Positions 28,201 through 61,843 of a stretch of DNA of 64,000 nucleotides are shown here, one piece after another. The position numbers were made by a program, and so were the translations under genes. The notes under the pieces are model-generated. The model saw only the letters and a list, made by a program, of their open reading frames with translations. It made no database searches and was not told the DNA's origin. Numbering within the stretch: the stretch's first letter is position 1; each line of letters begins with the position of its first letter. This DNA comes from Wolfiporia cocos. Its lineage: Eukaryota > Basidiomycota > Agaricomycetes > Polyporales > Phaeolaceae. Location: NCBI GenBank assembly GCA_029448655.1, contig JACCLO010000006.1:310001-374000 (forward strand), written 5' to 3'.

Positions 28201-29765
28201 CAGACAAGATAACGGCAAAAGAATTAGCGAACCTCCTGTACCTTCGGATTTATCCGAACCACGGACTTCCGAAACAAATCATTTCGGATAGAGGCCCGCA
28301 ATTCGCAGCTGCCTTGTTTAAGGGATGGTGTGAACAATTGGGAATCCAACGGTCAATGACAACTGCCTATCACCCGCAAGCGGATGGCCAGACGGAGAGA
28401 GTTAACCAAATCCTGGAACAATATCTTAGATGTTACATCGATGTTATTCAGAAGGATAACTGGTCATGGTTTCTCCCTACGGCCGAATTCGCGTACAACA
28501 ACGCGGCTAGTGAGACAACAAAGAATAGTCCATTCTTTGTCGAACTAGGAAGGCATCCCAACGCAGGACCTACGAATTTACGTCCAACACAATACGTGGA
28601 CCTAAATGTCATTGCTTACGAACGATGGTCAGCACAAGAACAAGCTAAGGCAGCAATGAAACTGGCTGCTGAACGCTGGTCTTGGTACTACGATCAACAT
28701 AAGCGCTCGGTACCGTTTAAAGTCGGCGACAAAGTTCTCGTTGACGCCCGAAGCTGGCAAGACTCCGAAAGAAGTCTTAGTCCACGCTATTTGGGACCAT
28801 TTAGGATAATTGAACAATTATCTCCGGTCACCTTTAGGGTACACATGGACGAGCAATACAGGGCTTACCACCCAGTATTCCACGCTTCCAAGTTGGTCAT
28901 GTACAAGGACCCGGTGCATCAGAAAAAACCAGAGCCTCAACCAGAAATGGTCGACGGCGAGGAGTTATGGGAAGTCGAGAAGATCTTAGATCATCGTCTC
29001 CGCGCAGGAAGAGTTGAATACAGAATCCGTTGGAAGGGATTCGGTATCAATGACGACTCCTGGGTACGCGAAGCGGATCTCGACTCGGCATACGACATTT
29101 TGCAGGAATACAAGGCTTCACACCCTATTCCAATGCAGGATGTCCCCCTCAGGCGATCAGCTAGAAGGAAAGAAGCAGTTCATGTCTTCGACCCTGACAG
29201 CGACGACTGGGAAGCCGACGAATGCACGTGGCCAGACGACTGGCCGCAGTATCGCGAAGAATTTGCGAAGGACCCTAAGCAACGCATGGTTAGACACCCC
29301 GACGGGGGATGGATGTCAGCGGACATTAACCAAAACGCGGATTTGAAAATCGTAGTCGGTGAAGGCGGCCGAATGCCGGAAAAAGGAACCAAGGACTCGG
29401 TTGGGTTTGACCTGTACACTGCAACAGGCGATGTTCTGCCAGCTCACGGGCAGACAGAATACAACACCAAACTGAAAATCCAGGTACCTTTCGGCACTTA
29501 CGGACGTATCGCCCCCCGCTCTAGTCTCGCACGCAAAGGCATAGACGTAATGGGAGGCGTTATCGACCACGATTATCAAGGCGAAGTAATCATCATTCTC
29601 CGGAATCACTCCGACATATCTATCGATATTCGGGCCGGCGATAAGATTGCCCAGCTAATCTGCGAAGTTGCAAAGGACCCGCATATTACGCTACACGGAA
29701 AATCTTACTTTGAAAAGATTAAATCCGAGCGCGGTACTGGTGGATTCGGCTCCACAGGAAAGTAA
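25230..29765 (+). CDS. pol: Pol polyprotein of gypsy-A: PR-RT-RNaseH-IN-chromodomain-dUTPase
   Basis: Open for 1,511 codons in the +1 frame relative to gag, overlapping it by 59 nt, so expression probably needs a +1 shift. Visible motifs: aspartic protease DTGAS (138); reverse transcriptase YLDD (513-516); RNase H; H2C2 zinc finger; integrase catalytic D957, D1020, E1056 with 35 residues between the last two; chromodomain from about 1247 (EVEKILDHR...IRWKGF). After this, where such elements normally end, comes a full trimeric-type dUTPase with all five motifs: GFDLYT (about 1392), GRIAPRSSLARKG, GGVIDHDYQGEV, AGDKIAQLI and RGTGGFGSTG. The dUTPase would lower dUTP during reverse transcription. 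The domain's position at the very C-terminus is unusual. Confidence 0.94.
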   Translation: MSGPSRFPSPQPHVSKTFCEEHTSPAAAGSVQRPEEAHLYEEASQRPLILWEDKTVVRHPVSHLGIFGNSAMDFARRTRTLATRAPPVQYFYPDPLALKFFTLYNVHGNDSRDDNKSFSIEVELWVYGKKVNAMALIDTGASISVIDKKLVHEEKLVTQKLPSPLEIRNADGTSNTAGNINMAVKAYMVHEEHKSTEFLYVMDVQNADVILGYDWFLKHNPDFNWPEGTFTYRCTEKCKHGKRVSISEEEDEIEPRNIYQIINDFPIDFLGLEEPENPFVAWVNTLDEGTELLIDAIQSITEKSDDEFLTDADLQKWKSLVPEEYQEFGPTVFSQRASERMPERKPYDHAIDFPDDAVLPPPSKAYKMSPQEANSLDQWIQEELRKGYIRHSKSPIASPVFFVPKKDGGARMVVDYRKVNDLTIKNRYPLPRIDELIDKLSQASIFTKLDLRWGYNNVRIKEGDEWKTAFITPNGLYEAVVMYFGFCNAPSTFQHMMNDILGDLIREGKVIVYLDDILVFGNDLLEHRRIVKQVLQILQDNDLFAKPEKCFFEQSSIEYLGMVISKGKVEMDPKKVAGVMDWPTPAKVKDVQAFVGFANYYRRFIKDFSKVVKPLTELSKKNTQWNWGPEQAEAFQTLKEAFTSAPILRIPDQESPFRVEADSSDYATGAVLSQYSSEDKLWHPVAFYSKSLSAPERNYEIYDKELLAIIRALEEWRHYLEGHPHKFEVWSDHLNLTYFKSAQRLTRRQARWSLYLTRFNFTMCHKPGKTMLTADPLSRRPDHEEGVELDNRDQILLKPEYFTVRALEASQQEIQSGDEDLLRQIRQALMDDQITKDYQELLKSGPKEFGKDLQEWNMEAGLLLRRGKVYVPKEPKELRTKILELHHDHVTAGHFGRWKTYELLSRNYWWPGMTTMVKQYVEGCDTCQRMKNHNQTPYGPLQPLPVPEAPWDTVTIDLIVHLPPSGELKQFNAIMVIVDRLTKRAHFIPTSDKITAKELANLLYLRIYPNHGLPKQIISDRGPQFAAALFKGWCEQLGIQRSMTTAYHPQADGQTERVNQILEQYLRCYIDVIQKDNWSWFLPTAEFAYNNAASETTKNSPFFVELGRHPNAGPTNLRPTQYVDLNVIAYERWSAQEQAKAAMKLAAERWSWYYDQHKRSVPFKVGDKVLVDARSWQDSERSLSPRYLGPFRIIEQLSPVTFRVHMDEQYRAYHPVFHASKLVMYKDPVHQKKPEPQPEMVDGEELWEVEKILDHRLRAGRVEYRIRWKGFGINDDSWVREADLDSAYDILQEYKASHPIPMQDVPLRRSARRKEAVHVFDPDSDDWEADECTWPDDWPQYREEFAKDPKQRMVRHPDGGWMSADINQNADLKIVVGEGGRMPEKGTKDSVGFDLYTATGDVLPAHGQTEYNTKLKIQVPFGTYGRIAPRSSLARKGIDVMGGVIDHDYQGEVIIILRNHSDISIDIRAGDKIAQLICEVAKDPHITLHGKSYFEKIKSERGTGGFGSTGK

Positions 29766-29804
29766 TCGTTCCATTAGGGACAATGAAACCTGAAGAGGGG
29801 GTAA

Positions 29805-30503
29805 TGTCACAGATTTGGGACATGCCACTATTTTTCCCGTATTTTTACCTATTTATCTGGTATTTCTACGACCTTGTAGACATTTACGCTGCTAAGCGCC
29901 CGTCTACACGTACACGCAACCAAACAACACGTACACAACGCGGTATACGTCCACCTGTCATAACAACACGTACATAACACGTTTGTACGCGTCAATGACT
30001 CAGCGGACTAACCTCCGGTGTCACGCGCTTTGCTCATATCCCGATACCGGGCTATGTCAGTACAATTGGATAAGCGGCCCGCTCGTTATCACATGCCAAT
30101 GCCCTTACGATTACTCATATCCCGATACCGGTATATAATAATCACATGCATGGCTTACTAACGTAGCTACAGCCACTTCCACAACATGGACCTACGGTCC
30201 AAACAAACGATCTTACTGGTGCGGCCATTACCGGCGCACATGGTCTATTGTAGTTTACGACTTAACCATATTAGTTATGTCTGCGCACAGACCACCCTCA
30301 TGTTTGGCTCCCTTACCGGTAACCAAACAAAGCATGTATATAAGTAGGGCTATCACTGCGGATAAGCCTTAGATTTGTTCTCTGCATTCGCACAGTTACA
30401 TACCATCTCTGCTTGCGCCCACTAGCCTCCTCACCAACCTTCTGCAACTCCTTCAAGTCGCCTATAAGGTTATAGTGTGAGTCCCACAGTCTAGTCTGTG
30501 TCA
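29805..30503 (+). repeat. 3' LTR of gypsy-A
   Basis: 699 bp, apparently identical to the 5' LTR by eye, preceded by the polypurine tract gaagagggggtaa. Confidence 0.95.
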
Positions 30504-31608
30504 CCTCAGACTCAGGGTCGTCATCGTCATCCTCGTCTGCGTCGTTCTCGTCACCCTCCTCCTTGTCAGACAAGGAAGGACGGAACAGTTGCCTGTGACT
30601 GGAAGACGGCGTCGGCGCGGTAACGTTGGGGGAGGGCGCAGGATCGTCCATGTTGGGCGGTAAGGGCACGCCGGCCTTGTCCAAGTTGTCAGCGCGCTGC
30701 CGAATTTTGTCAACTGTATAATGTTGGTTAGCAACGCGGCACCAAGGAGTAAAAGAACAACGCACTCCCGCGGCCCCTGGGTAATGAAGCATTCGTGAGA
30801 AGCAGATTGCGGTCCCAGGCTCCCCACCGACAGATCAGTCGTGAGCCATGACAACTTTCGCATGGCGGCTTTCCCTTCAGATCGCACTTCTCCCCTTTGA
30901 TCAGGCACCACAGGCACCCCTTCTGCGAAAGATCACCGAGTAGTCAGCACTGGACGCCAAGGGAGAAAGTTCCGGGAAGCAACGTACCAAGCCCTTTGGG
31001 TATGTCGTCGGGTACACCGTCCGCTGACGCTTAGGTAGAGTCTCAGCTTCATCCTCGGAAGGGGCCTTTCGCTTGCTGGAGGCCACCGCCTGAGCTTTTA
31101 GAGAGGCGAGGAGAGCAATGTGCGCTGATGGCGAGTTCCGCGATCGGGCCGAGGTCAACTGGTGGGGCAGGGGCAAGCCGAGCCGAGATTGCGCTGCGGT
31201 GTCCCCGGTGGCTTCGGAACGAGGTGAAGGCCGTTCAGCAGTGCACGCCAAGGCTCCATCACTAGTGCCATGGCTGCGCCTGTCGCCACCCAAACATCCA
31301 GCTGAAGATACTGCGCTAGAAGACGGCAGGGGTACGGCGCGCCTCGGGAGCGGACCCAGAATGGGGTAGGCGGACTTGGACTCAGAACGGGCGACGTGCT
31401 CTGGATTTACGGCGGTCGTGTCAGGATCCGCTTGGGAAGTGGGGCCCGCCTCCTGCGCAGAAGAATCAAGCGGAGGAAGCACTGGGACGGGGAAGGCCGC
31501 CAGGCAGTCAAGCATCCGAGGGCGCCGCGCCCGCCGGCAGTTGGCACGATGCTCTATTTCCGCAAGGATTCGCTCGCCGCTTTCCAATGCAACCGCATCC
31601 AGTCGTTC

Positions 31609-32174
31609 TGTCATGGATCACTCCTGGGGGGTATCTGTACATCCCTCGCTATTGGTATTCATAGGCGCCGCTAGGTGCGCGCGCGTCTTCCTGATCATTA
31701 GCCACCTCCAGCGTCTCCTCCAGCCATGTAGATCATCTGACCTAGTAGTTTAGCGCTGTAGGGTAGCGCGCACCTCAGGTACGGACACATCACGGTCACA
31801 TTAGTCACATGTTACGTTACGTATCCCGTGATCCCTTAGTTACGGCGCACAGGCCATTACATTAGGGTAGGACTCGTGCTCTCAACGTTCATGCATGTAC
31901 ATATACGACAAGATGGTGGCCTTACAGCCCCATCTTTAGGATTCTTGTCTATGAGCGCAAGCTCCTTTCTTACCACCTAGTCTGTGTTATCGTGTGCCCG
32001 GGGCCCCTATCCTGCTGGCTAGACTGCGAGTGTTTCCACTCGTCGTCTGGGCACCTCGCGACTACGTCACTTGGATGGACCTATGAGTACGGCGAGCGCG
32101 TCGCCTTGCGCCTATGCTGGCTTGTAGAGAGTCCCCATGTAGCCATGGTCGCACAGACTGGTAAGTCTGTGACA
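31609..32174 (+). repeat. Solo LTR in the second exon of the Zn2Cys6 gene
   Basis: 566 bp, a diverged relative of the 578-bp LTR at 57165, with perfect duplication cgttc (31604-31608, 32175-32179). Its first bases supply an in-frame ATG-ACA on the minus strand, so the downstream half of the gene could be read from an LTR-derived start. Confidence 0.9.
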
Positions 32175-32590
32175 CGTTCGCCGGTCGCCATCCTCCGGCT
32201 CCATTGTTCCAGCGCGAGCCCGTACGGCGTAACGTCCAGTATCTTGCCCCAGGGCCGCCAAGATGGCCGGAAATGCGGGAGCAATACGCCGAGGTGCTGA
32301 GGCATCACATCGACCAGCCGCTGACTGGCGATTGAACCACCCGCGAGCTCAAAGTGCTGCTGGGGAAGGGGGAGCGTCAGCGCCACCTCGCTCTGCCCGG
32401 CACACAGGACGAGACTTACCAGGAGCGGGACCAAGAGCCACGCAAAGTGTTTGTAACCTATCTCGTTGGAGCCGGGGCGCGGGAGGTATAACACGGCGTC
32501 CGTGATCGCCTCGGCAAGTTCTGAATACGTCATTGACGGAGCCCGACTAGAGAGGTCCCTGAGGACGTCGAAATTGTTTATGCGAGCCAT

Positions 32591-33197
32591 TGCAACAAGC
32601 AACAAGTAGGCTCGATACAGATGGGGAACAAGGAACATAGCGAGACGCCACGAGGCGACTGCAGGATCTTCTATCTTCTATCTATCTATCTATCCATAAA
32701 GTTAGATTCCATTTCCATTGATTCCCTATCGCATAGCATAAAAGCATTATACTCTTGCATGTACATGACTCTGTAACCGCTCAGCATGACTTATATACCA
32801 TGTATCGATCGCTTGTCTGCTTCAGTGTACATACATTAGCAGTAGCCATCGAGACTCGAAACACATCCAACCGGTCCTCAGCGATGTCAGCGCAGGAGGA
32901 TCGCATTGCGTCCCAATATGTGAGCCATTGCAGGGTGCTGCCTCCCTTGACTTCCCGTGAAAGACCTACATCCGAATTCTGTGGGCCACAGATGCAGCTG
33001 CGGTTGTGTGGCGTCGGCCACCGTTGGCTCCGCATAGGGCACAGGGGAGTGCCGCGCTGCAGTCGCTTGGTGCACCGGAGCGCTGGTTGCCGTCCAGTGC
33101 ACGTGGCGACTCTTGCTTACTGATAGGGTAGACTCGCATCTCTCCTCTTGACTGCCACCACCACAGCCCTCCCCCTTCCAAGCCCAAGCACAGTGTC
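32591..33197. other. Intergenic region between divergent genes
   Basis: A 5' flank shared by the Zn2Cys6 gene (minus) and the REase-kinase locus (plus). A short tctatctatcta run lies near 32680. No further feature seen. Confidence 0.5.
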
Positions 33198-34445
33198 ATG
33201 TCATCGGGTTTGAAACGTCCCAGTAATACCCCATCATCGCCACGCAAGAAGCCGCGTCCTCAAACTTTAAAGAGCTTAGTCGAGGAGGCAGCCAAAGAGG
33301 TCGACGACGAGATTGAACATGTAAAAAAAGAGATGTTGCCGCTTCTACAGAGGAGTAATCTTGATACACTTGGTGTTGAGGGCGCCATGAGTGTTATGGG
33401 ACGTGTGGTCAGAGCAGCTTCTGCTCCTGGAGAGAAGAAGTTGGGCGAAATGCGGTACTTAGAAGTACGTATCGACATCCCAGATAATTACCCGGAATGG
33501 GCAAGTAAGCTTGCTGTCTATTCCTGGCGTCCCTGGTCCCAAGCTGACACCCACTCCAAAGAGTTACAACTGAATGATTTGAATACACAATATGCGAACC
33601 TTGCCATTTCTTTCAGGGTACTGCTCAACTCCCTCCCTGCACCATCAGAATTCGCCAAGACGGACGTGTGGGCAGACGTACAAAGAACCCGCGCAGCCAT
33701 CTTATGTATGCGTCCCGTTGAAAAGAGCGGTGTGCCGATATGCACGCTCCACGATGTCTTTCGCCTTTTCCGAATTCGACTTGGCACAGACCTTTCTTCA
33801 GCCACCGATGACCCTATCGCGGTCGCCTCCATCCGTGCTGCTGCCTTATTGTGCAACGAGATGGGAAACCCGTTCGAAGATGAGAACGCACGCACAGCAA
33901 AATTTAACGAATGCGTTCGAGGATTGCTCCCTAACTTTAGGCTCAACCACAAATTTCGTCCCAAACTCGACCGTGCCGGATGCGAACCGGATGCGACGTT
34001 GTTCGCGGACGAGGAGGAGATCATCCCAGTTTGCCTGCGTGAGGACAAGCGTGAGGCGGGCGAAACTGGCTATGACGTCTACATGCAAGTGGCGCGCGAC
34101 TACTCGATTGCGGTCAAAACCTTGGAGAAATCTTCGACGTGCATGAAGGCGGGCGCACCAATGCTTCTCCCATGCTTGTTGGGTATGTACTTTGAACCAA
34201 ACGTACATGTTCTTGGGCGCCCTTATGATTATCACACAGGACCCCATCTGTCCGTGCAGGGCGGTTTTTATGATGGAGTGGATTACATAGTGGAACCACT
34301 AAGTGCAATGTATTGTATGCTACCAGACTTCACCAAAGAGCGACAGAATCAGCTCGCGCGGTTGCTGTATGCGCTCGCTAAAGGAATAGAGGAGCTGAAG
34401 GAGTACGTTGCCCATTACAATAACGCCACTGCGGGATCAGGTTAA
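33198..34445 (+). CDS. REase-like N-terminal half of an REase-kinase locus
   Basis: 415 codons without introns. After a basic N-terminus (KRPSNTPSSPRKKPRP, a probable nuclear signal) comes a helical region. A nuclease-fold core then reads IIPVCLREDKREAGETGYD, where E/D and K are placed as in an ExK-type PD-(D/E)XK active site, followed by YMQVARDY. The end (LLYALAKGIEELKEYV) is the usual lead-in to the kinase domain in fungal REase-kinase fusions. There is no Crinkler header, unlike the gene at 10360-13030. The TAA at 34443-34445 overlaps the next ATG (TAATG), so the kinase lies in a different frame. Confidence 0.65.
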   Translation: MSSGLKRPSNTPSSPRKKPRPQTLKSLVEEAAKEVDDEIEHVKKEMLPLLQRSNLDTLGVEGAMSVMGRVVRAASAPGEKKLGEMRYLEVRIDIPDNYPEWASKLAVYSWRPWSQADTHSKELQLNDLNTQYANLAISFRVLLNSLPAPSEFAKTDVWADVQRTRAAILCMRPVEKSGVPICTLHDVFRLFRIRLGTDLSSATDDPIAVASIRAAALLCNEMGNPFEDENARTAKFNECVRGLLPNFRLNHKFRPKLDRAGCEPDATLFADEEEIIPVCLREDKREAGETGYDVYMQVARDYSIAVKTLEKSSTCMKAGAPMLLPCLLGMYFEPNVHVLGRPYDYHTGPHLSVQGGFYDGVDYIVEPLSAMYCMLPDFTKERQNQLARLLYALAKGIEELKEYVAHYNNATAGSG

Positions 34446-35167
34446 TGACGTCCTACAGGCTGGCTTCGTCAACCGCCGAACCACCCTCATTCCCTTGTGG
34501 CACCCCTCGAATCTACTCATCCTGCACGCTGTATGCCGACACCGCTGCCGACACCGCTGCCGACAAACCAAGCGCCGGGACCCTCACATTCAAGAAGCCT
34601 CTTGCCGTTGATCTCATCAACAGCCAAACGCTGTTCACAGCAACGTTGTCGACGACCTCTGCACGGAAGAAGTTGCCGGAGCAGATACCTGTGGTTGTCA
34701 AGCTTGTCAGCGGTTCCTATGGCGAAGACGTACATCGACTTCTGGCGAAGGAAGGCCTTGCGCCTACGCTCCATGGGTGTGTCCGCTTGGAAGGTGCTCC
34801 CGTTGCCTACGTCATGGACCACTTGGATGGGGATTGGAAGCGCTTACACGACCTCTTACGTGATTTAACCCCTCTGTGCCGTAAGGCTATACGGGAATCA
34901 TTGGAGAATGTTCTGGAATTGCTCAAGAAAAAGGGCTTCGTACACGGCGACCTTAGGTCGAGCAATATCATGGCGCGGATCGTTGACGAAGAAAAAGCGG
35001 AGATCAAGGTCGTCGACTTTGATTGGGCGGGCAAAGCCGGTCAGGTATTCTACCCTGCGACGCGCAACGAGTCCATCGGTTGGCCTGGTTGGCCCTGTGG
35101 TCCGATTGAAGCTGAGGATGACCGCGAACTGCTTGATTCGTGGTGGCCGCGAGAAACCCATGTCTGA
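34445..35167 (+). CDS. Fungal protein kinase half of the same REase-kinase locus
   Basis: 240 codons. Kinase features: VVVKLVS (ATP-binding Lys), YGEDVHRLLAKEGLAP, hinge-like YVMDHLDG, catalytic loop HGDLRSSN (HGD rather than HRD) and VDFDWAG in place of DFG, then a short C-lobe ending near YP. This layout matches the small, divergent fungal kinases that follow an REase-like domain. Its ATG overlaps the stop of the upstream frame. It is either a one-base frameshift in a formerly fused gene or translation by termination-reinitiation. An unrecognised short intron is also possible. Confidence 0.65.
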   Translation: MTSYRLASSTAEPPSFPCGTPRIYSSCTLYADTAADTAADKPSAGTLTFKKPLAVDLINSQTLFTATLSTTSARKKLPEQIPVVVKLVSGSYGEDVHRLLAKEGLAPTLHGCVRLEGAPVAYVMDHLDGDWKRLHDLLRDLTPLCRKAIRESLENVLELLKKKGFVHGDLRSSNIMARIVDEEKAEIKVVDFDWAGKAGQVFYPATRNESIGWPGWPCGPIEAEDDRELLDSWWPRETHV

Positions 35168-36647
35168 TCGTTGTTTCAAAGCACTCCTCCTTCTCTCGCT
35201 ACGTTTGTATGTAGTTTCCATTCTCGATGTGACTATACCAGCAACGCATACAACCAAAAATACTACGGCTGATCGTGGTTCCGGTGATTCGCAAGCGATG
35301 CATTGTTGCGCGCCGAACACCATGCAGACAGTCTGAAGTCGCATACGGAGGCATCAGATCAGCCGCAACCCAGTTACAGTCGTTCCTGAAAGTAATGACA
35401 CGAAGCACCTTTCGAAAACGCGTCACCGATTAGGGATTTTCCTTTCAGGTAACTGGCTATGAGTGCGATGCTCGCGCCAGTGTAACTTCTCCGCTCACCT
35501 CCCCTTCATTTGACACACCAATATGGACCTCACAACATTATTTAGGACTTGCAAGGTAGAGGGCGAGTGTGATGTCAGCAACGCCTTATAGGTCCGAGAC
35601 AGCCCCAGTTGATTTTTAGTGCACTTCACAGCCAACCTCCCGAATTGGTAATGCCTAAATCGGTGACACTTTTCGAGAAGTGTCTGTGTCATTATTTCGG
35701 GAACGGCTGTAAACTAAATGTGGACACTGGCGGTCGTCCGTGCATCGGCAAAATGCGAACCCTCATATATAGTCCGTTAACTATTGTAATGACGAGTTAA
35801 GAAGATATAGATATATGAACAGATACTATGCAAGGGTAATGGCAGGTTAAATGAGGATGGAAGTATTATTTGCAGGATCAACTAGAATGGAAATATTAGT
35901 TGTAGGACTAAAGAGGACAGACATCTTGTTTGCAGGATCAACAAGGATGTTTGTAGGATTGACGAGGATGGAAATCTTAATTGCAATATTAATGGGGATG
36001 GAAGCATTAGTGGCAGGATTAACACAGACAGAAATCTTGATTGCAGGATCAATGAGGACGGAATATTGATATCAATGGCAGGATCAATGCAGGCAGGGAT
36101 GTCAATGGCATGATCGAGATGCACACTTTTACTTATTTACAGTTTGTGTATTTGAGCATAGCCATAGCTAATCCCCTCAGAAAGCATGCGAAGCAATAGT
36201 AAGTAAATGAGCCCATATACCTATACCACAGGTCAGTCATATTCACAGCCATTGGCTGATGTTAATGTTGAAAGATTGAATATTGAATGCATTAGAAAAG
36301 GAGGGCATCAGCACACAGCAGTGCAGCATCCAGGCATGACACAGCTCCCATCCAATTTAGTAAGTCCCTTGCTTGATTGGGCAACACCTTTTAATTATGT
36401 CATACTTTTGGGCAGCTCTTGATTCTTGTCCATAATGGCCGGCTCTCATCACTGCCAATGTGCTCAACCTTCTCTCTCCCCCAATCCATATAGTACACTC
36501 TCAACACCTTCAGTGCAGCCTATCACATGCATGTACCTAAGATCCACCACTCTCTCTCCCTCATCTTTCTTTCCCTCCTGGCACCATGCATTGCAGTCTT
36601 TACTTATAGCCCTGCTTGCTCCCCATGTGCACAGTGCATTTATTTTT
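35168..36647. other. No gene; contains a 30-bp minisatellite
   Basis: No supported ORF or RNA apart from the tandem repeat annotated separately. The sequence becomes AT-rich after 35600. Confidence 0.5.
35845..36115. repeat. Tandem repeat, about 30-bp unit, about 9 imperfect copies
   Basis: Units follow the consensus aggatcaa-aggatggaaatcttaattgc. Because 30 is a multiple of 3 all frames stay open as decapeptide repeats, but nothing indicates translation. Confidence 0.75.
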
Positions 36648-37804
36648 TGACACAAACCTGACTTACTTTGCTTCTTATATGCGGAAGAGGCAGTAGTAGA
36701 AAGTGTTTATAGGCGCAAAGCTAGGCGGATAAGGCTAAAGCTTTATATCAAGGAGAACAGAACTGAGTTGTAACACTCAGACTGTCTTGCTTATATACAT
36801 GTGTTACAAGACCCCTAATACTACTATGACCCATAATACCTAAGGCTGAGTAACGCTACATGTGATCTCTAGGTATGACTGTTGTGTTATGACTACGTGT
36901 GAGTCAGCCGTCATGTGCTGCTACACCATACATGTGATTCTGTGGTACATGGAACCTGCTAGAAGGTTCCGGTGGTTTTCTGTCACACGCCAATTTCAAG
37001 CCTTTAGGCACAGTACCTTTTCCGACCATCCCCAAAGCTGGGAACCCGATGCCGCAGCCAGATCCAAGCCCTACGTATGTACCACTACGGGCACTAGCTA
37101 ACAGCATCGCCAGCCATGCCTAAGAACCCTAGTCCCGGACCCCACGTCCAGTCCGATATAAAGCCACACAAGTCACATGACCCTTGGCTCACGCTAAGCC
37201 AACCCTTGGCTCACGTTAAGCCGACCCTTGGCTCACGTTAAGCCGCCATTACTGGCATTGACCCGACCGACGAGGACCACCGGTCATTATGACGTCACAA
37301 CCCCGATTGCGGCAGACCACGCCCGATCATGGACTTAGAACCCCGCCATTACCGGCGCACCTACAATCGACGAGAACCACTGATCAAACCCGACCGATTG
37401 GCTATCCATCTGATCCGACCCTATACGCTACGTCGCCATGGACATCCTCGCGTACCCCAGCGCTCCGATGCCATTACCGGCACATAGCTCATAGCCAGAT
37501 AGATACCAGTACGTAGAGGCCTCTGAGCCGCCGTACACAAACATGTACAAATAGATTAGGAGTATATATGCCGGACAGTCTTGAGCGTAAACCTCAGACT
37601 TGTCTTGGCCTTTTGTGCCTTGAGATGCCCGGACCAGGAAGGCGCTTTCATGCGACCCACCTTCCCCCGGTGTGTGTCTTAAGGTTGCGCTTGTGTCATT
37701 TTCTTAAGCACTTTGTCACGTGTATTCCTAAGACATTATTCTTATGCTCTATGCGTAAGTACTCGTCGTGTGAAAGCAGGAAAAGTAGCTAAAAATCTGT
37801 GACA
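36648..37804 (-). repeat. LTR (family of 18554-19013) containing a nested solo LTR
   Basis: Starts tgacacaaacctgactt and ends aaaaatctgtgaca, like the LTR at 18554-19013. Flanks (ttttt / gagag) do not match, so one end may be rearranged. Interrupted by the LTR at 36981-37698. Confidence 0.65.
36981..37698 (+). repeat. Nested solo LTR
   Basis: 718 bp, TGTCACACGC to TTGTGTCA, with perfect duplication ttttc (36976-36980, 37699-37703). Confidence 0.9.
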
Positions 37805-38988: not shown

Positions 38989-39117
38989 CTAGGGGAGGGA
39001 CTTCAGTGCCAGAGATGCATCTTTAGAGACACCGCAGATGCATCTGGGGCACTCTAAGGTAAGCGCCAGCCACACGCCCGGAAAGGCATTAAAGAGGAGT
39101 AAAACGAACGAGCTGGA

Positions 39118-50675: not shown

Positions 50676-50974
50676 GGCAAGCCGCCTTTACTGGTATCTG
50701 ATGTACTTAAGCTGCGTTGGCATGGGGCTTACTCTCCATGCTTAACATTCTTGACTTTGGGCCTAGTGCCCCTCTTGGAATTCCCATGTGCCTGCGTGCT
50801 GGGCTGCACCCCTCTTCTCATCTCACTAGACTGGGAGGTTCCTCAGTGGCTTACAACGCTGCCACTCTAGGAACGTACGACCTCAGACACCATGTCTAGG
50901 TCGTATATTGGGGTTTCCCCACTGCGTGGTCCCATGGACTCCGTCCGTGTCAGGGTCTATATCAGTTGTAGAGA

Positions 50975-53199: not shown

Positions 53200-53818
53200 T
53201 GTCACAAGAATTCTCCTAGTTTCCCTAAATTTCTTACTATTTTTCCAGCAATTCTACGAATTATCCACAACTTTCTAGACCAATAACTAGCTTATCCGGT
53301 TCATAAGTTAACGGTTACATACGTGCCGAATGATGGCCGCGTTATTACCCGTAACGACGGTCTTATCTTATCACTAGTAGTTACCATCAGTCACATGTCT
53401 AGTTCCAGCCAATCGGACATTCTGTCCGAAAGCAGTCAGCATATAAACGTCAGCGGACCGGGCTTTGGTCACGCCCCGTCTTTGTAATGACAAGAGCGCA
53501 AAACGCCATTCGTGCGGCCTACGCCGCCTTTCTATATCCCGGTTTTGATCGGCATATGTATTTATCGTATATTACTAAGTACTTAGGTATCTGGGGACTT
53601 GTACATACGAATATGGACACTAGTATTATCTAATAAGACTGTTAGGGGTCTTATTTATCATGTATATATACTAGCCTTGCTGAGCGCTATTGCCTCAGTT
53701 CTATTCATTGCATTTATACTACGAGTTAACCACTCAACGTATCCTGCTTAACACCTGCTTATCCCTTGCCTAACCAGCAAATACCAAGAACATATCAAGT
53801 AAGTGTTATCTTGTGTTA
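53200..53818 (+). repeat. Solo LTR, 619 bp, TG...TA type
   Basis: TGTCACAAG to CTTGTGTTA, with perfect duplication cgctt (53195-53199, 53819-53823). Same family and length as 39789-40407. Confidence 0.92.
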
Positions 53819-54214
53819 CGCTTAATCAACGGCCTTAACTTGCTCATCATGGCCTCATCCATCTCTACACCAATTTCTTGATTGTTTCTCTTCCACTTCG
53901 ACGTCTTATCCTCTGGCTCCTTCAAGATTTGGATTTGTGCCACAAGCAGTGGCAACTTGGCATCACATGGTCTTGACTGATTGGCGAGCAAGGAGTGCAA
54001 GGGATCATCACCATCTCCTGTGATATCATCATAGAAGGCCTCAAGTTTATAGTCGCTGTCTTTGAAGGGACCTTGAAGCTGTTTCATATTCTTGCAAGTG
54101 AGATACTCCTTTGGCTGTGGAAGGCAGTGATTGAATGCAATACGTGAAGATACGTTGGCGACAAACCTTCCACAGAGTGACCAAAGCTGGATGCGCTTCC
54201 ATTTACTCGACGAC

Positions 54215-54926
54215 TGTTACGGGTCGAATACCCGTTCGTATATTCGAGTTGCGAATATAGATCGTTCTTCTGCACGTGGGCGTACAGCCGTATGCAAGGC
54301 AAATGCTCGTTAGATGCCTTCAAGCCCTAGGTGAAGTTCCTAGGGGATCGTATAATATCCAATACGCGTTAGAGGATATAATCTGTTCAGATGCGAGTCT
54401 AATAGAATATGAGACTCGCCTAAGTCCGAGAAGTCAATGTGCACTTCGAGGACTTAGTCGTTCAGTTGCTCGAGCGAGAAATACTGAGCGTAGTTTCCTA
54501 CGTTTGAGAACGAGTATAAGACTTCTTGTTTGTACAACAAGGTCGAGCTGAAGAGCCTCGACGGTAAGTACATGAGTTTTTATACTACGCTAAGTTTCAG
54601 GGGTCAAGTCTGTCCCAGATGCCACCGATACTATCTACGCTATAGTCCCAAACGTTTGATAAGTATGGAGCGATATATCTGAGACGATAGATAGGAATGA
54701 TGGTGGTTGAACACCATCTATCAGCTAAGTAAAATGATGAACCTGAAACGATGGCAGAGTTGGATCTGCCAGAGATGAAACGAGTCTCGTTAGACTAGTA
54801 CAACTGGGGATGCGCCCAGTAAGATTACGAGTAGCCAGGGGAGGTTGGTTGCGCAACAAGTCCCTGTATCGTATTCGCCCGGTGGTGAGTTCTGCCGATA
54901 TTCGAAAAATCAAAATAACTGTAACA
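54215..54926 (-). repeat. 3' LTR of gypsy-B
   Basis: 712 bp; its first 174 bp recur at 63827-64000. A purine tract (agggaggggctga, minus strand) abuts its start. Confidence 0.92.
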
Positions 54927-54980
54927 TCAGCCCCTCCCTAGGCATTCGTCGGCCTCGACGAATTTTCCAAGTTCCTCTCT

Positions 54981-56045
54981 TCAGAGTGCCTCGGCGTCCT
55001 GTTCGTTGTAGATGTCGCCGTTCCCGCTGAGGGACGGGGTCGTAGGAGTTCGCCATACGAAGTGTTGGCGGCATTCATTCTGTCGATGACCTGGTTGATT
55101 GAGCCCACAAGCTCGGCAAATATAATCGGGGCAGTCGAGGATCAAGTGACTAGCGGATCCGCACTGTCGACAGGGTTGTTCAGGCGAGGGCCTCGCTGGT
55201 ACCCGTAGGGAAGGGATATCTCTGAGATATTCGTTGTGTCGATATCTCCAGTGGTGAGCGGCGCGGTGAAGGTTCCGTTGCGCCCATGTGGGTAAGGAGG
55301 CGGTGTCTCGTTCGTGCTCCCTCGCACCTCGCTCAAACTCCTCGCGGGTAATGCTCTGCACCGATGGAGATCGTCGAATAGGCGGCGTGCTATTCGCTCT
55401 TCGCTGTCGTTCTGGGGTAGCCCTAGGGCTCGTCGGGCGTGCAGGTGGTTCACGTCTCCCGTTGCCTCCCACACCAGGAATACGTGGCGTCGGGTCTCTA
55501 ACTCCCGTTCGGCGGGCCCTCTGAGTCTCGGTAGGCAGTGGAAATAATACTCTATCGCCCTCCATAAAATCAAACGGCCTTGCAACTCGGCATCGTTCGT
55601 TGGTGGTGAAAAAGCGGGCGGGTCGTGGTACGTATTCGGGTCGGTTGGGAGTAACGTGCTCGCGATCCTCGAAGTCGTTGAGCGCGTGTCGTAGTCGGGC
55701 CGTCGTGGTGGCGGCCAGTCGGTCGATAAGTCTGTTGGTGAGTAACTCGAGTCCCTCTCTCTGCACTCTGATCTGCCCCTCCATTCGGACGAGGTCCTCG
55801 GTGATGTTCTGGTACGAGCTGTAAACATGGGTGAGGTCCTGCGTGATGTCGAAGAGGGCCGTCCAGCCATCGGCTCGGCCAGCAAAAGGTCCCTCGGCCC
55901 TGTACCAGAGCAGGGCATGTCTGATCTGTAGGTGTTGGGGGGAGTGCCTCCTCTGCGGCGTACCTCTCGGTCGTCCCTCTCTGTGGCCCGCATCGCTGTG
56001 AGGGGTCGGAGCGCGGCGAGGGAGTTGGTGGCGAGTCGTCGACAT
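54981..56045 (-). CDS. Extra ORF downstream of pol in gypsy-B, double CCHC zinc knuckle
   Basis: 354 residues ending 55 bp from the 3' LTR. The N-terminal third is basic. A probable coiled coil follows (about 70-130), then an Arg/Pro-rich linker. At the C-terminus are two adjacent zinc knuckles, CRQCGSASHLILDC and CRACGLNQPGHRQNEC, typical of nucleic-acid-binding Gag nucleocapsids. No signal peptide or membrane segment, so it is not an envelope protein. It overlaps the open tail of the pol frame for about 900 nt. It may be a second nucleocapsid-like factor or a captured gene. A subgenomic RNA or readthrough would be needed for expression. Confidence 0.7.
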   Translation of the reverse strand: MSTTRHQLPRRAPTPHSDAGHREGRPRGTPQRRHSPQHLQIRHALLWYRAEGPFAGRADGWTALFDITQDLTHVYSSYQNITEDLVRMEGQIRVQREGLELLTNRLIDRLAATTTARLRHALNDFEDREHVTPNRPEYVPRPARFFTTNERCRVARPFDFMEGDRVLFPLPTETQRARRTGVRDPTPRIPGVGGNGRREPPARPTSPRATPERQRRANSTPPIRRSPSVQSITREEFERGAREHERDTASLPTWAQRNLHRAAHHWRYRHNEYLRDIPSLRVPARPSPEQPCRQCGSASHLILDCPDYICRACGLNQPGHRQNECRQHFVWRTPTTPSLSGNGDIYNEQDAEAL

Positions 56046-57164
56046 ATTATTACTGTTCGGTTTTCGAGTGTTGGGGCTGTCCTGACTCTCGTCCTGTGGT
56101 AGTCTTTTATCAGCTCCTTGGAATGTTCCAAGTTCGCCTCATCTTCCCATGAGTTGTCGGCCGTGGCATAGCCTTTCCATTTGACGAAGTACTGGTGCTT
56201 CTTCCCTCGCCATCTATCAGCCAAGATGGCTTCGACTTCGTACTCTTCTTGTCCCTTGACGATATCAGGTGGCGGCCGTAGGTAATTGGGTCCGTGTACC
56301 CTCGTTTCTCTGAACGGTTTTAGTAAGGCGGCATGGAATACCGGATGAATTTTCCAGTTGGTTGGTAACTGCAACCGGTATGTCGTGGGTCCCATTTTTT
56401 CTGTGATGGTGAAGGGTCCCTCTCTTTTTGGCGCTAGTTTGTTCGATTCGTAGGGGATTGTTAGGTTCTTGGCATCGAGCCAGACCTTGTCCCCTTTCTC
56501 AAGCTTTGGCAGTTCTCTAAGGAACCGCCCTGCCATTCTTTTCTGGGCTAATTCATGCGCGATGAATGCCATCTTTCGCGCCTCTTTGATCTTCTTGATC
56601 CTGTCAACTGCTGCCGGGACGTTCCCCACTCTGTCATAGTCTGGGAATCCTCTCGGGATATAACCCAGAATTATTTCGAGTGGCGCTGGCCGGTTTTCGG
56701 TTCGTCTGGTGTTGTGTGCAAATTCGACGTCAGGTAGTCGTTGTACCCATTGGAACGGGTCGTTCATGCAGTAAATGCGAAGGTATACTTCGATTTGTTG
56801 GTTCATTCTTTCTGTTTGTCCGTCGGTCTGTGGATGGTACGCCGTACTCATCGCCGATTCTGTTCCCTGCAGCTTGCACAATTCCTTGAAAAGTGTTGAT
56901 GCAAACTGTGGTCCTCTGTCTGAAATGATTTTTCGGGGGATGCCGTATAGCGAGTAGATTTTGCGGTGAAATATTTCTGCGGCCCCTTCGCTCGTGATCG
57001 TCTTGTCGCATGGGGTGAGAGAGATGGCCTTGGATAGGCCATGGTCGACAATCACCATCACGGAGTCATATTTTCCGACTCTTGGCAGGTCGGTGACAAA
57101 ATCTACTGAGCACTGTGAGAAGGGGAGGGCGTCTTCCCGTGTCGGTATTGGCTGCAAAGGGGGT
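55142..57164 (-). CDS. pol: Pol of gypsy-B, 3' part: integrase core and chromodomain
   Basis: Continues the Pol frame beyond the nested element. Shows integrase core VDFVTDLP, ISDRGPQF and QTERMNQ (the D, D, E residues), a DNA-binding region and a chromodomain (YEVEAILADRW...FVKWKGY...SWEDEANLE, about 56100-56260). The frame then stays open to 55142 over the extra ORF. The last 300 or so codons look like an Arg/Ser-rich shadow of that ORF rather than real protein, so the true Pol end is uncertain. Confidence 0.8.
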
Positions 57165-57742
57165 TGTCACGGATATGCCCGGGGGGCTACTGTACATCCC
57201 TTTCCTATTGTTGTATGGGCGCCGCTGCACGCGCGCGCGCCCCGCTCACTTTACGTTTCCTCTCGGTCGCGCCCTAGTTACCTCCAAGATCACCTGACCC
57301 AGTAGGCGCGCGCTAGTCAGGCAGCGCGCGTGCCAGGTACTCACATGCTAGGTCACCATATAGTTACATGTTACGTTACTTGTACGGTCACGCTTACATT
57401 ACATGCGCACAGGCCATTACTGTAGGGCAGGCTAGATACTTAGCGTACCAACACCTGTACTTATACTGCAGCGATGGGGGCTTACTCCCCCATCTTTGAG
57501 ATTCTAGTCGTTTGGGCTTAGGCCCCTTTCTTATTTGCGCGTGATGCGTCTCTGCCCCGGGGGCCTCTCTTGCCACGCTTGACTGTGTGCCGCCACCTTA
57601 CGTCGCCGTTAGGAGTCCTCGGGTTGGTGCTGCCCTTGGTACAGGCGACTCGGTCACCGCTGTCGCGGTCGCACACAAGCCTCGTTAGGCACGTTAGGAT
57701 TCCCCTGCAGCGCAGGTCCTCACAAACAGTAAGTTTGTGACA
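57165..57742 (+). repeat. 5' LTR of the nested element
   Basis: TGTCACGG to TTTGTGACA. Confidence 0.93.
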
Positions 57743-58432
57743 TAATCTCAAAGATGTTTTACCTCCCCTCCGGCGCTCGCGCTGGGGCCGAGGGTTTTTC
57801 ACTCCTAGGTCGCCATGGCATCACGGCGGGGCAGCCATCGGTAGAAGCACCGGTGGTCCGTAGCTTTACGAGCCCCCACGAAGTGATACACCAGGCAAAG
57901 CGACCAGGAGGAGTAAAAAGTAAGTCCGCCCCCCATGAACAACAGGGTAGCGGGGTCAACCAGCGTAAGCCGTGTTTGAGGGCCCGCCGCCGCCATTAAC
58001 CAAATGTGCGCACGCGTGGAGGTCTAGCGCAGCGCGGCCATACCCCTGGGCGGCAGGAGCCAAGCCAAGAACCTCTGACCTGTGGGTATGCGAAGGGGCC
58101 CGCAAGGGTTACCCAACCCCACGCCGACGGTCTCAGAGTGATGAAGGTTCAGTACGGACTACCGCGACGACGATGTCGGGATTAGGCAAGCGGAGGCACA
58201 CGGGGACGACGGGGACCCCATCTAAAAAATAACCCAGTAACCTCAGCGACGAATGCCGAACCGATACCGAAACCGCCTCCTCCGCTCTCCCACCGGTGGA
58301 CGGTCCACCTGCGCGGACGCTCCCCATCTTCCGTCAAGTAAGAATGGGCCGTGCATAAATAAAGACCAAGGGATGTAGCGCCGTAGAAGCTAGGTAGAAA
58401 GTCGGGACGACTTTTTTTGAGAGGGGGGGTAA

Positions 58433-59010
58433 TGTCACGGATATGCCCGGGGGGCTACTGTACATCCCTTTCCTATTGTTGTATGGGCGCCGCTGCACGC
58501 GCGCGCGCCCCGCTCACTTTACGTTTCCTCTCGGTCGCGCCCTAGTTACCTCCAAGATCACCTGACCCAGTAGGCGCGCGCTAGTCAGGCAGCGCGCGTG
58601 CCAGGTACTCACATGCTAGGTCACCATATAGTTACATGTTACGTTACTTGTACGGTCACGCTTACATTACATGCGCACAGGCCATTACTGTAGGGCAGGC
58701 TAGATACTTAGCGTACCAACACCTGTACTTATACTGCAGCGATGGGGGCTTACTCCCCCATCTTTGAGATTCTAGTCGTTTGGGCTTAGGCCCCTTTCTT
58801 ATTTGTGCGTGATGCGTCTCTGCCCCGGGGGCCTCTCTTGCCGCGCTTGACTGTGTGCCGCCACCTTACGTCGCCGTTAGGAGTCCTCGGGTTGGTGCTG
58901 CCCTTGGTACAGCCGACTCGGTCACCGCTGTCGCGGTCGCACACAAGCCTCGTTAGGCACGTTAGGATTCCCCTGCAGCGCAGGTCCTCACAAACAGTAA
59001 GTTTGTGACA
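58433..59010 (+). repeat. 3' LTR of the nested element
   Basis: Same length as the 5' copy, with small differences near 58806, 58842 and 58913. Confidence 0.93.
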
Positions 59011-61843
59011 GGGGTTTCAGCGGGTTCCTATCAGGTTTCATTTGTTGACAGATTGCACAGCCCCGGACGTATTCCGCTATCATTGTTCCCATGTCGGGCC
59101 ACCAAAAATGGGTCTTAACCTGTACTGTTGTACCCCAGATCCCAGGGTGTCCGGCCGGGATCGTGTCGTGGTATTTTGAGATGACGTCTCGTCGAAGGCC
59201 CTCATCCTTCGGCACGTACATCCTGCCTCTGTAGAGCAGTATCCCATCCGTTTGTTGCCATTCATCCGCGGTGGTTCTTGCGGGGAATTCGCCTGTTCCT
59301 TCCAGGGCGCGGATCGCCTGTTCCGCAGATTCATCTCGATCGTGGGCGTTCTTGATCCGATCGATGATCGGGATCTGGATTGCGTGGACGACGAGTTCGT
59401 CTGGAATCATGGTGATTCCCTCGTTGTCTTCGTTGCTTTCGTCTAGGTGGTACAACCTGGAAAGCGTGTCGGCCATGACTAGTTTCCTTCCTGGGACGTG
59501 CTGTAATTTCAGGTCGAACTGCGAAAGGAATAGATGCCATCTCGCTTGTCGCCGATTTAGGCGCTGTGCGCTTCTCCAGTACGTCAGGTTCTGATGATCG
59601 CTTCGGATCAAGATCCGATGCGGTGCTCCTTCTAATAGGTGTCGCCATTCTTCTAGTGCTCGGATTATTCCGAGTAGTTCGCGATCGTAGATTTCGTAGT
59701 TCCGTTCTGTTGATGTCAGGGATTGTGAGAGATATCCCACCGGCCGTTCGCGCCCTGTTTCATCTGTCTGTTTCAGTACTGCTCCTGTGGCGAACTGAGA
59801 TGCGTCTGTTTCGAGGATGAACGGTTTCTCCTTGTCTGGCGTCCCCAGTGCGGGCGCCGTCGTGAATGCTTCCTTCATGAACTCAAATGCTTTCTGTTCT
59901 TTCCTCGTCCATTGGAATCCTGTCCCCGTGACTGTTTTTGTGAGGTCTACCAAGGGTCGGGCGTGCGTAGAGTAGTGGTCGATAAATTTCCGATAGAAGT
60001 TCGCAAATCCTAGGAAGGATCTGACTTCTTTGAGATTTCGGGGAGTCGGCCACTCCTTAATCCCTTTGAGTTTCGCTGGGTCCATCTGGATATTTCCTGG
60101 GGTGATGACTAGTCCCAGAAATTCGACTCTGTCGACACCGAAGGCGCATTTCTCGGGTTTCACAAAGAGATGGTTATCCACCAATCTCTGAAGGATCCGC
60201 CGTTCTCGTTCCTTGTGCACTTTCTCGTTTTCTGAGAAAATGAGGATGTCGTCCATATAAACAAGCACCCATCCTTCGAGGATTTCGTCTTTCAAGATTT
60301 CGTTCATCATTGCTTGGAAGGTCCCGGGTGCATTGCACAATCCGAAAAACATAACCGTGGGTTCGTACAACCCTCGGTTTGTTTTGAAGGCCGCTTTCCA
60401 TTCGTCTCCCTTTTTGATTCGCACATTGTTGTATCCCGCTCTAAGGTCCATTTTTGTGAAGACCTTTGCCCCTTTTAGCTTTTCCAGGAGTTCTGAGATC
60501 AGTGGTAAGGGATAGACGTTCTTTATCGTTCCTTCGTTCAGATATCGATAATCTTGACAGGGTCGCAGGCCGCTGTCTTTCTTTGGGACGAAAAAGAATG
60601 GTGACGCCATCGGGGATTTTGAAGGGACTATGAAACCTTTTGCCAGGTTTTCTTTCAGGAATTCGTCCAGCGCCTGTTGTTCCTTGGGTGAGAGTGCATA
60701 GACTTTGCAGTCTTTCGGCACGAAATCGGGTTTTAATTCGATGGCATGGTCCCATGGTCTCGATGGGGGAAACGCTGCTGCGGACTCCTTGCTAAACACC
60801 TTGGCGGAGTCCAGTAGGTGTTTCGGGACCATCTCTTCGATCGTTCGTTCTGGTTCGGGGGTTTTCTGTGCGAATTCCTGAGACTTCGTTAGCGCTTTCC
60901 TGACAGCGTTGATGATTTGTATCTTTGTTCGGAACTTCTTTCGTGTTTCCCCTTTCTTCCCTATGATCCTAGGGCTCTCTTTCGCGAAACGTCGGATCGC
61001 TTCGTACTCTTCGGGAGTATAGAGCCGCTGCGCTGTTTCTTCTGGTTCGTCCGTGGATCCGAACCCTTTCTCCCCTCGTTCTGTTTCATCTAGGTCTTTG
61101 ACCTCTAAGATGTCGGGGGTGAGGTGTCGTTCGAAAATTATCTGGGCTATTCGCATGCCCGGGATAATTCTATGCGCTTTGTCCGAGTAGTTGAAGATGA
61201 TGGCTCCGACGTTTCCTCGGTAGTCCGAGTCTATGATTCCGGCTTGTACTACCAATCCGTGTCTGAGGGTGTTGCCTGATCGTCCAGCCAGCCTTCCATA
61301 CGATCCCTTCGGGATCTTCATTTTTACTCCTGTGGAGACGAGTTTCCATCCTCCGGCGGGAATCTCGGTTTCTTCTGCGGCGTAAAGGTCATACCCCGCA
61401 GCTTCTTGGGTCCCCCTCGTTGGAATTTTTCCTTCTGGGGCGACTACCATCTCCACCGTATCCATTCGGATTGTGGCTTCCTGTTTCTTTTCTTCTGCCC
61501 CTAGTATTGATCGTACATCGACTGTTTGGTCCTTCCAGTCGATTGTGGGGTTTTCGTCTTTTAGCCATCCATACCCTAGAATCATGTTTTCTGTTCCGAT
61601 TGATCCTACTAGGAATCGGACTTTTCGCGTTTTCTGGGTCTTCGGATATCGTAGTAGTATGGTGGCTTCTCGGTCTATTCGCCCGTCTTTGTTTTCCGTT
61701 CCGTCAACGTTTTTGACGATGATCGGGTTCTTCAAGGGTTGCGTGGGCACCTTGTATTTTTCTACCACTCTGCTGTGGATTAGGTTCGACATTGCTCCTG
61801 AGTCGATTAGTGCATTGCACTTCACGGGTTTTGCCAGCGCCAT
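59011..61843 (-). CDS. pol: Pol of gypsy-B, 5' part: protease-dUTPase-RT-RNase H-zinc finger
   Basis: Visible order: retropepsin-like active site LIDSGA (about residue 12); then a dUTPase (about 130-270) with AAGYDLYA, GRLAGRSGNTLRHG, AGIIDSDYRGNV, GMRIAQIIF and RGEKGFGST; then reverse transcriptase with YMDD (529-532); RNase H; and an H2C2 finger (GHPGIW...CAICQQMK) at which the frame is cut by the nested element. The dUTPase sits between protease and RT, unlike gypsy-A. The first Met is at 61843, but the frame is open upstream across the gag stop in the -1 register, suggesting Gag-Pol by -1 shift. With one target duplication removed the frame is continuous with 55142-57164. Confidence 0.9.

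What the first reader, a model, noticed from the sequence alone, without database searches (positions are those of the whole stretch)
29350..61460. Two gypsy elements carry dUTPase at different Pol positions
Gypsy-A has a complete five-motif dUTPase after the chromodomain (about 29350-29765). Gypsy-B has one between protease and reverse transcriptase (about 61030-61460, minus). dUTPases are known from some retroviruses but are uncommon in Ty3/gypsy elements. Two positions in one locus imply either independent captures or domain movement, and suggest uracil avoidance matters for these elements in fungi.
Basis: partly seen in the sequence, partly recalled or inferred. Interest (0 to 1): 0.75.

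Follow-up and report, generated by a model that had tools for sequence, protein, structure and literature searches.

The report
dUTPase-bearing fungal gypsy retrotransposons
Two mobile elements in a fungal genome each carry an apparently intact enzyme that keeps uracil out of DNA, placed at different spots in their main protein; the pattern is real, but it was described in another wood-rotting fungus in 2010.

Summary
Gypsy-A has a dUTPase after its chromodomain (29370-29759, +); Gypsy-B has one between protease and reverse transcriptase (61052-61432, -). Both keep five motifs with the motif-3 Asp and Tyr, and a confidently predicted dUTPase fold. Both elements have identical LTRs and 5-bp target duplications, but an LTR-flanked 1.85-kb insert splits Gypsy-B's integrase. 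Such domains are common here: four family queries each returned 150 listed places, in sets too different to overlap. Two further families place the dUTPase upstream of protease. In the ten families examined, position goes with lineage. Of 150 scored reverse transcriptases nearest a chromovirus query, 112 have a dUTPase hit within 4 kb downstream. The same three positions, and independent acquisition, were reported for Postia placenta in 2010 (PMC2864245, passages). One capture with relocation versus several captures stays open: a single origin is not rejected (AU p 0.535 and 0.266), and one shared residue, not in every member, hints at kinship of A and B. Low dN/dS in two pairs supports a retained protein function; catalysis and uracil avoidance were not tested. 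Verdict: new members of a known kind.

The parts
20531..21229 (+). Gypsy-A 5' LTR, 699 bp (starts TG, ends CA); target-site duplication CCTCA at 20526-20530
   Evidence: 0 mismatches to the 3' LTR; boundary set by hand one base inside the reported 700-base repeat so that the LTR starts with TG
23243..25288 (+). Gypsy-A Gag open frame (681 aa, stop to stop) with one CCHC-like knuckle
   Evidence: open frame, translation; no Pfam match; knuckle read by eye
25179..29765 (+). Gypsy-A Pol open frame, 1528 aa: PR - RT - RH - IN - chromodomain - dUTPase; overlaps the Gag frame in another reading frame
28968..29117 (+). Gypsy-A chromodomain
   Evidence: PF00385, 42.2 bits, aa 1264-1313
29370..29759 (+). 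Gypsy-A dUTPase domain, C-terminal
   Evidence: PF00692, 111.6 bits, aa 1398-1527; motifs; model and PDB matches
29805..30503 (+). Gypsy-A 3' LTR, 699 bp; target-site duplication CCTCA at 30504-30508
61933..63786 (-). Gypsy-B Gag open frame (617 aa) with a Gag domain and a zinc knuckle
   Evidence: PF03732 27.2 bits and PF00098 26.2 bits, over cut-off; PF19259 (Ty3 capsid) 22.6 bits, under its cut-off of 29.1
58988..61996 (-). Gypsy-B Pol open frame, 1002 aa: PR - dUTPase - RT - RH - start of IN; its last codons lie inside the insert
   Evidence: the protease match is under its Pfam cut-off
61052..61432 (-). Gypsy-B dUTPase domain, between PR and RT
   Evidence: PF00692, 128.4 bits, aa 189-315; motifs; model and PDB matches
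57165..59010 (.). Insert in Gypsy-B: two direct 578-bp LTR-like repeats (57165-57742 and 58433-59010) around about 690 bp, flanked by GGGGT on both sides; splits the integrase
   Evidence: 3 mismatches in 578; its junction with Gypsy-B spans 1 of 40 scored matches
55142..57166 (-). Open frame holding the rest of Gypsy-B Pol: integrase core, Tf2-1-like SH3 and chromodomain (chromodomain about 56093-56242)
   Evidence: PF00385 59.9 bits, PF24626 68.9 bits; PF00665 30.0 bits, under its cut-off of 32.6
54215..54926 (-). Gypsy-B 3' LTR, 712 bp; the 5' LTR runs from 63827 to 538 bases past the window's end; both outer flanks read ACGAC
   Evidence: 0 mismatches over the 713-base repeat, read with 600 adjacent bases, locus L089; boundary set by hand

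Best explanation
Gypsy-A and Gypsy-B belong to two lineages of chromodomain-bearing Ty3/gypsy LTR retrotransposons in a fungus, probably a basidiomycete. Each carries an apparently intact trimeric-type dUTPase at a lineage-fixed place in Pol: after the chromodomain in the A lineage, between protease and reverse transcriptase in the B lineage, and, in a third lineage of the same genome, upstream of protease. Shown: domain, motifs, predicted fold, position, copy number, identical LTRs, low dN/dS in two pairs. Inferred: the element protease releases the domain or leaves it fused inside virus-like particles; it hydrolyses dUTP to dUMP near the reverse transcriptase, so that cDNA made outside S phase does not take up uracil and is neither mutated nor attacked by uracil excision. 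The finding is a further case of what Novikova and co-workers described in Postia. How many times the domain was captured is not settled.
For: Domain and order. Motifs. Fold. Recent insertion: identical LTRs and 5-bp duplications. Copies: 150 of 150 scored A-type hits are 100% identical to the window's domain over 159 aa; 150 of 150 scored B-type hits lie at 94-100%; 150 of 150 C-type at 87-100%; 152 A3-type matches from 150 scored candidates, the 150 listed at 70-100%. Third position: L069 and L070. Lineage-fixed position. Link of RT and dUTPase in the A-like clade: 112 of 150 RT hits have a dUTPase hit within 4 kb downstream, 99 of these at 2.8-3.2 kb. Constraint: dN/dS of the dUTPase 0.124 (B against L001) and 0.109 (G against H), dS 0.18 in both. 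Mechanism by analogy: dUTPase-defective non-primate lentiviruses are impaired in non-dividing cells and gather G-to-A changes (PMC4531489, passages). Prior art: PMC2864245, passages.
Against: No activity, expression, processing or particle data. Departures from the usual motif 2: B reads GRSGNT where most rows have PRSGLA; A4 reads TRSSMA; A2 has His for Arg at the start of motif 5. Within the A clade the dUTPase has drifted much faster than the RT (44-51% against 77-82% identity). 28 of 150 RT hits had no dUTPase in the lists used and 10 had one only at 4-10 kb; the lists were incomplete, so real absences are possible. The window's Gypsy-B is broken by an insert. That uracil is a problem for these elements in fungi rests on analogy alone.
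Confidence: 0.85

Rival explanations
1. One capture, then movement: a single dUTPase entered an ancestor of these fungal gypsy lineages and was later relocated within Gag-Pol, giving the three positions.
For: AU tests do not reject all families as one clade (p 0.535, the tree with them held together being 1.45 log units better; p 0.266 and 15.15 log units worse after adding A3 and A4). The RTs of the A, B and C/D lineages are 57-65% identical to each other against 44-53% to P0009 and P0020, two distant elements with a PR-RT dUTPase. A- and B-type domains share Gly 12 residues before motif 1: of 125 scorable proteins among 144, 5 have Gly, all A- or B-type, 108 Ala, 10 Ser, 1 Lys and 1 Thr; A2, A3, E, G and H show Gly as well.
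Against: dUTPases of the three positions are only 40-52% identical to each other, no closer than to unrelated elements. The shared Gly is not universal: A4 has Thr, and the Wolfiporia protein P0029 of the B clade has Ala; C and D have Ala. The RT tree puts B with C/D rather than with A (85/85, not starred), which does not match an A-B dUTPase pairing.
Confidence: 0.4
2. Several independent captures: the A, B and C/D lineages took dUTPase from different donors, as Novikova and co-workers proposed for Postia placenta.
For: Three supported separate dUTPase clades that match position: PR-RT 100/98, upstream of PR 100/98, A+A2+A3 98/89. Copia elements, a retrovirus-like Pol (P0018) and a gypsy-like Pol with dUTPase between RNase H and integrase (P0008) carry dUTPases too, so capture by retroelements is not rare. 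The published proposal: PMC2864245 (passages).
Against: No donor is identified for any clade. A single origin is not rejected. The grouping of A with copia P0011 (95/89) was gone when A3 and A4 were added.
Confidence: 0.5
3. The domain is kept for something other than dUTP hydrolysis (structural, or interaction-based), as has been proposed for some retroviral dUTPase-like proteins.
For: The bovine immunodeficiency virus dUTPase-related gene is reported, by its title, to be critical despite lack of activity (PMC4261571, search listing only). Some motif residues vary here.
Against: All residues held invariant in the 36-row alignment, including the motif-3 Asp and Tyr, are present in A and B, which a purely structural role would not demand.
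Confidence: 0.07

Closest known systems
PosPlaTy3-3, -4 and -5 of Postia placenta (Novikova et al. 2010, PMC2864245; passages seen)
   Same: Fungal Ty3/gypsy elements with dUTPase at the Pol amino end, the carboxyl end, or between PR and RT in one genome; independent acquisition proposed there
   Different: No Postia sequences were available here, so family-by-family identity could not be tested. Copy counts, dN/dS and linkage figures here are for another genome
dUTPase-containing Metaviridae of Phanerochaete chrysosporium (Novikova and Blinov 2008) and Tmt1 of Tuber (Riccioni et al. 2008)
   Same: Cited in PMC2864245 as earlier fungal elements with dUTPase
   Different: Known here only through citations; neither paper was seen
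Juno, Vesta and TelKA elements of bdelloid rotifers (PMC5408684; passages seen)
   Same: dUTPase between PR and RT, as in Gypsy-B
   Different: No chromodomain found there; animal host
Giant gypsy-like elements of planarians (PMC6431247; passages seen)
   Same: dUTPase-like domain between PR and RT
   Different: Very large ORFs with many extra domains
dUTPases of betaretroviruses and non-primate lentiviruses (PMC4531489, passages seen; PMC2774666, passages seen, calls the betaretroviral one similar to that of fungal chromoviruses)
   Same: dUTPase inside a retroelement polyprotein; two genomic locations
   Different: Vertebrate viruses; the role in non-dividing cells was tested there and not here

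Membership tests
Trimeric-type dUTPase (PF00692) | Family profile match over the curated cut-off | tested here: met
   111.6 and 128.4 bits against 22
Trimeric-type dUTPase (PF00692) | Five ordered motifs with motif-3 Asp and Tyr | tested here: met
   B departs from the usual letters in motif 2
Trimeric-type dUTPase (PF00692) | dUTPase fold | tested here: met
   pLDDT 90.8 and 87.7; the 50 listed PDB matches are dUTPases for each
Trimeric-type dUTPase (PF00692) | Homotrimer and dUTP hydrolysis | not testable with these tools
   Monomer models only; no assay
Chromodomain Ty3/gypsy LTR retrotransposon | LTRs and a 5-bp target duplication | tested here: met
   A: 699-bp LTRs, CCTCA. B: 712-bp LTRs, ACGAC
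Chromodomain Ty3/gypsy LTR retrotransposon | Order PR-RT-RH-IN-chromodomain | tested here: met
   A in one frame; B over two frames split by an insert, with its protease (22.5 against 28.2) and integrase-core (30.0 against 32.6) matches under the Pfam cut-offs
Chromodomain Ty3/gypsy LTR retrotransposon | tRNA primer-binding site | not tested
   Only the bases after the 5' LTR of A were printed; no tRNA was matched
PosPlaTy3-type dUTPase elements | dUTPase at the N terminus, C terminus or PR-RT position of Pol in one genome | tested here: met
   against the text of PMC2864245
PosPlaTy3-type dUTPase elements | Sequence relationship to the named Postia families | not testable with these tools
   No Postia element sequences were among the records seen here

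The most novel reading that the evidence does not exclude
One dUTPase, captured once by an ancestor of these fungal gypsy lineages, has since been moved to three places in Gag-Pol while staying under constraint, which would make these elements a natural experiment in how freely a helper enzyme can be placed in a retroelement polyprotein.
Probability: 0.35. Interest if true: 0.5.

Novelty: new member of a known kind. Interest (0 to 1): 0.28.

Why it matters
In this genome dUTPase looks like a standard part of several abundant gypsy families rather than an oddity: four family queries each returned 150 listed places. That makes the question why a fungal retrotransposon needs its own dUTPase testable with many very similar, apparently recent copies. 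If uracil in cDNA limits retrotransposition in hyphae, the host's uracil-excision pathway would act as a restriction on these elements. The three-position pattern itself has been in print since 2010.

Tried and rejected
Rejected: chance or decayed domain (scores and motifs); assembly freak of one locus (many copies); A and B as sister dUTPase copies; kinship of the A dUTPase with copia P0011 (95/89, gone).

Tried without result: the host's own cellular dUTPase gene, sought with yeast, Chlorella and Dictyostelium pieces. The listings are filled by hits that resemble the element families; I did not check every row, and an intron-split host gene could lie below the 150-candidate limit. I first took PDB entry 3so2 for a fungal protein from memory; one search names it Chlorella dUTPase, so the tree holds only one cellular fungal dUTPase (yeast, 3f4f). 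Pfam scans of 8 other window frames gave no retroelement domain. No tRNA gene was found in the window by a scan set to the bacterial code. A first count of the pre-motif-1 residue failed through a wrong pattern and ended in an error; it was redone. No claim that something is absent from print is made; the paper searches were in an open-licence library.

Full report
What was checked. The window is bases 310001-374000 of contig C56 in a 64.4-Mb genome in 76 contigs. Gypsy-A Pol is one open frame of 1528 aa at 25179-29765 with the order PR, RT, RNase H, IN, chromodomain, dUTPase; PF00692 matches aa 1398-1527 with 111.6 bits. Gypsy-B is on the minus strand: its Pol frame runs from 61996 down to 58988 with PR (22.5 bits, under the Pfam cut-off of 28.2), dUTPase, RT, RNase H and the start of IN; PF00692 matches aa 189-315 with 128.4 bits. 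Both dUTPase scores are far above the cut-off of 22.

The domains look able to work. In an alignment with 34 other proteins the columns held by every row include the motif-3 Asp and Tyr, and both window domains have them. The motif table shows near-usual letters in A; B has GRSGNT in motif 2, which none of the eight cellular rows has, though the SGNT part occurs in two copia rows. AlphaFold2 models have mean pLDDT 90.8 and 87.7, with the weak part at the C-terminal end. Foldseek reports 251 and 258 PDB chains at E of 0.001 or less, and the 50 shown for each are dUTPases.

The elements. Gypsy-A has two LTRs of 699 bp without a mismatch, with CCTCA on both sides. Gypsy-B has two LTRs of 712 bp without a mismatch, with ACGAC on both sides; its 5' LTR ends 538 bases beyond the window. 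Gypsy-B carries an insert at 57165-59010 made of two 578-bp direct repeats with 3 mismatches around about 690 bp, flanked by GGGGT; it splits the integrase, whose core (30.0 bits, under the cut-off of 32.6) and chromodomain continue in the frame at 55142-57166. Only 1 of 40 scored matches spans the junction of insert and element, while the insert's repeat end matches at the other 39, so the insert looks like one copy of a repeated small LTR element.

How common. A family search gave 1428 first-look candidates, of which 150 were scored, and all 150 passed the cut-off. With the A domain as query all 150 scored hits were 100% identical over 159 aa. With the B domain all 150 scored hits were 94-100% identical. 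With the C domain (L069) all 150 were 87-100% identical. With the A3 domain there were 152 matches from 150 scored candidates; the 150 listed are 70-100% identical. The four query domains are 43-51% identical to each other, so these sets should not overlap, which makes about 600 places or more.

Positions in the same genome. L069 (C) and L070 (D) have the dUTPase upstream of PR, behind a long N-terminal stretch that I take for Gag by its place, without a domain test, in one long open frame. B, E (L072), G (L083) and H (L084) have it between PR and RT. A, A3 (L085/L086) and A4 (L087/L088) have it after the chromodomain; A2 (L082) has it at the end of a 244-aa open frame in which no chromodomain was looked at separately. 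The reading frames also differ: in A and in B the Pol frame overlaps Gag in another frame, and in C and D one frame holds both. For 150 RT hits nearest a distant chromovirus RT (P0009), a dUTPase hit on the same strand lies within 4 kb downstream in 112 (99 of them at 2.8-3.2 kb), at 4-10 kb in 10, and in none of the lists used in 28. The lists were incomplete (8 of 150 A-type rows, 110 of 150 A4-query rows, all 150 listed A3-query rows), so the 28 are not shown to lack it; two of them have the 1528-aa frame length of A.

Trees. In the dUTPase tree of 51 rows the PR-RT group (with two Wolfiporia cocos proteins) has support 100/98, the group upstream of PR 100/98, and A+A2+A3 98/89; A4 is a long branch that is not placed, and the bootstrap had not fully settled. 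Between positions the order is unresolved. AU tests do not reject one clade of all these families (p 0.535; p 0.266), nor A+B, A+C/D or B+C/D. The RT tree puts B with C/D at 85/85, not starred. Identity of RT and of dUTPase falls together: RT 77-82% goes with dUTPase 44-51% in the A clade, and RT 57-65% with dUTPase 40-52% between positions, so the dUTPase has lost most of its signal at that depth. One residue stands out: 12 positions before motif 1, A- and B-type domains mostly have Gly. Of 125 scorable proteins (of 144 held) 5 have Gly, all A- or B-type, 108 Ala, 10 Ser, 1 Lys and 1 Thr. Against it, A4 has Thr and the Wolfiporia protein P0029, which groups with B, has Ala; C and D have Ala. 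It is a hint at a common origin of the A and B domains and no more.

Selection. For the two pairs with unsaturated dS, dN/dS of the dUTPase is 0.124 (B against L001; RT 0.094, PR 0.036) and 0.109 (G against H; RT 0.071, PR 0.082). Other pairs have dS of 1.6 or more, or undefined, for the dUTPase and are not relied on. The domain is thus kept nearly as strictly as the other Pol enzymes over these spans, though across the A clade it has changed much more than the RT.

Mechanism. From the family's chemistry the domain should turn dUTP into dUMP. In retroviruses the enzyme matters in non-dividing cells, where cellular dUTPase is low, and its loss raises G-to-A changes (PMC4531489, passages). The most likely reading here is the same service to reverse transcription in hyphal cells outside S phase.

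What is already known. Novikova and co-workers found, in Postia placenta, dUTPase at the amino end of Pol (PosPlaTy3-3), at the carboxyl end (PosPlaTy3-4) and between PR and RT (PosPlaTy3-5), and wrote that the elements seem to have acquired it independently; they cite earlier cases in Phanerochaete chrysosporium and Tuber (PMC2864245, passages). Rotifer elements and a planarian giant element have it between PR and RT (PMC5408684 and PMC6431247, passages). A fungal LTR survey holds no mention of dUTPase in its main text (PMC3248453, term search). The host here is probably a polypore or a relative: the only hits listed with a fungal name are two Wolfiporia cocos proteins, which is thin ground.

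Verdict. The elements are new members of a known kind. Whether one capture or several is left open, with a slight lean to several.

Noticed in passing
G000 contigs C21-C73: Many small contigs carry a Gypsy-B-type dUTPase frame (often 1151 aa) and an A4-like 243-aa dUTPase frame at nearly the same places; within single contigs one or the other recurs at about 67.07, 69.05, 72.03, 72.07, 77.01 or 78.86 kb, as if they were pieces of one large tandem array. The single 5.8S rRNA match lies on C6, so it is not obviously rDNA.
   Followed up: partly
window 57165-59010: A 1.85-kb LTR-flanked insert without an open frame of 200 aa or more inside it; the same repeat end recurs in pairs about 1.27 kb apart at several other places, which fits a small non-autonomous LTR family.
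   Followed up: partly
P0010-P0017, P0019, P0021-P0023: Polyproteins with PF07727, which I take for copia-type from memory of that family, also carry dUTPase, so capture is not confined to gypsy elements.
   Followed up: partly
P0008 (aa 907-1035): A gypsy-like Pol of unknown host with dUTPase between RNase H and integrase, the place known from non-primate lentiviruses (recalled), and with a dUTPase that falls among cellular ones in the tree.
   Followed up: partly
P0025 and P0095: Short records named Anoxybacillus and Novosphingobium hold pieces 94% and 100% identical to the Gypsy-B dUTPase (the second over 44% of the query); they look like fungal contamination of bacterial assemblies.
   Followed up: no
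window 22232-23152 (+): A 306-aa open frame between the 5' LTR and Gag of Gypsy-A, without a Pfam match.
   Followed up: no
window 34424-35167 (+): A 247-aa open frame with weak phosphotransferase/kinase similarity (PF01636, 25.3 bits against a cut-off of 23.2), perhaps a host gene exon.
   Followed up: no
Gypsy-B, window 54215 to beyond 64000: The LTRs of Gypsy-B are identical over 712 bp although the insert inside it has 3 differences in 578 bp; since the junction was seen at one place only, the ages sit slightly oddly together.
   Followed up: partly
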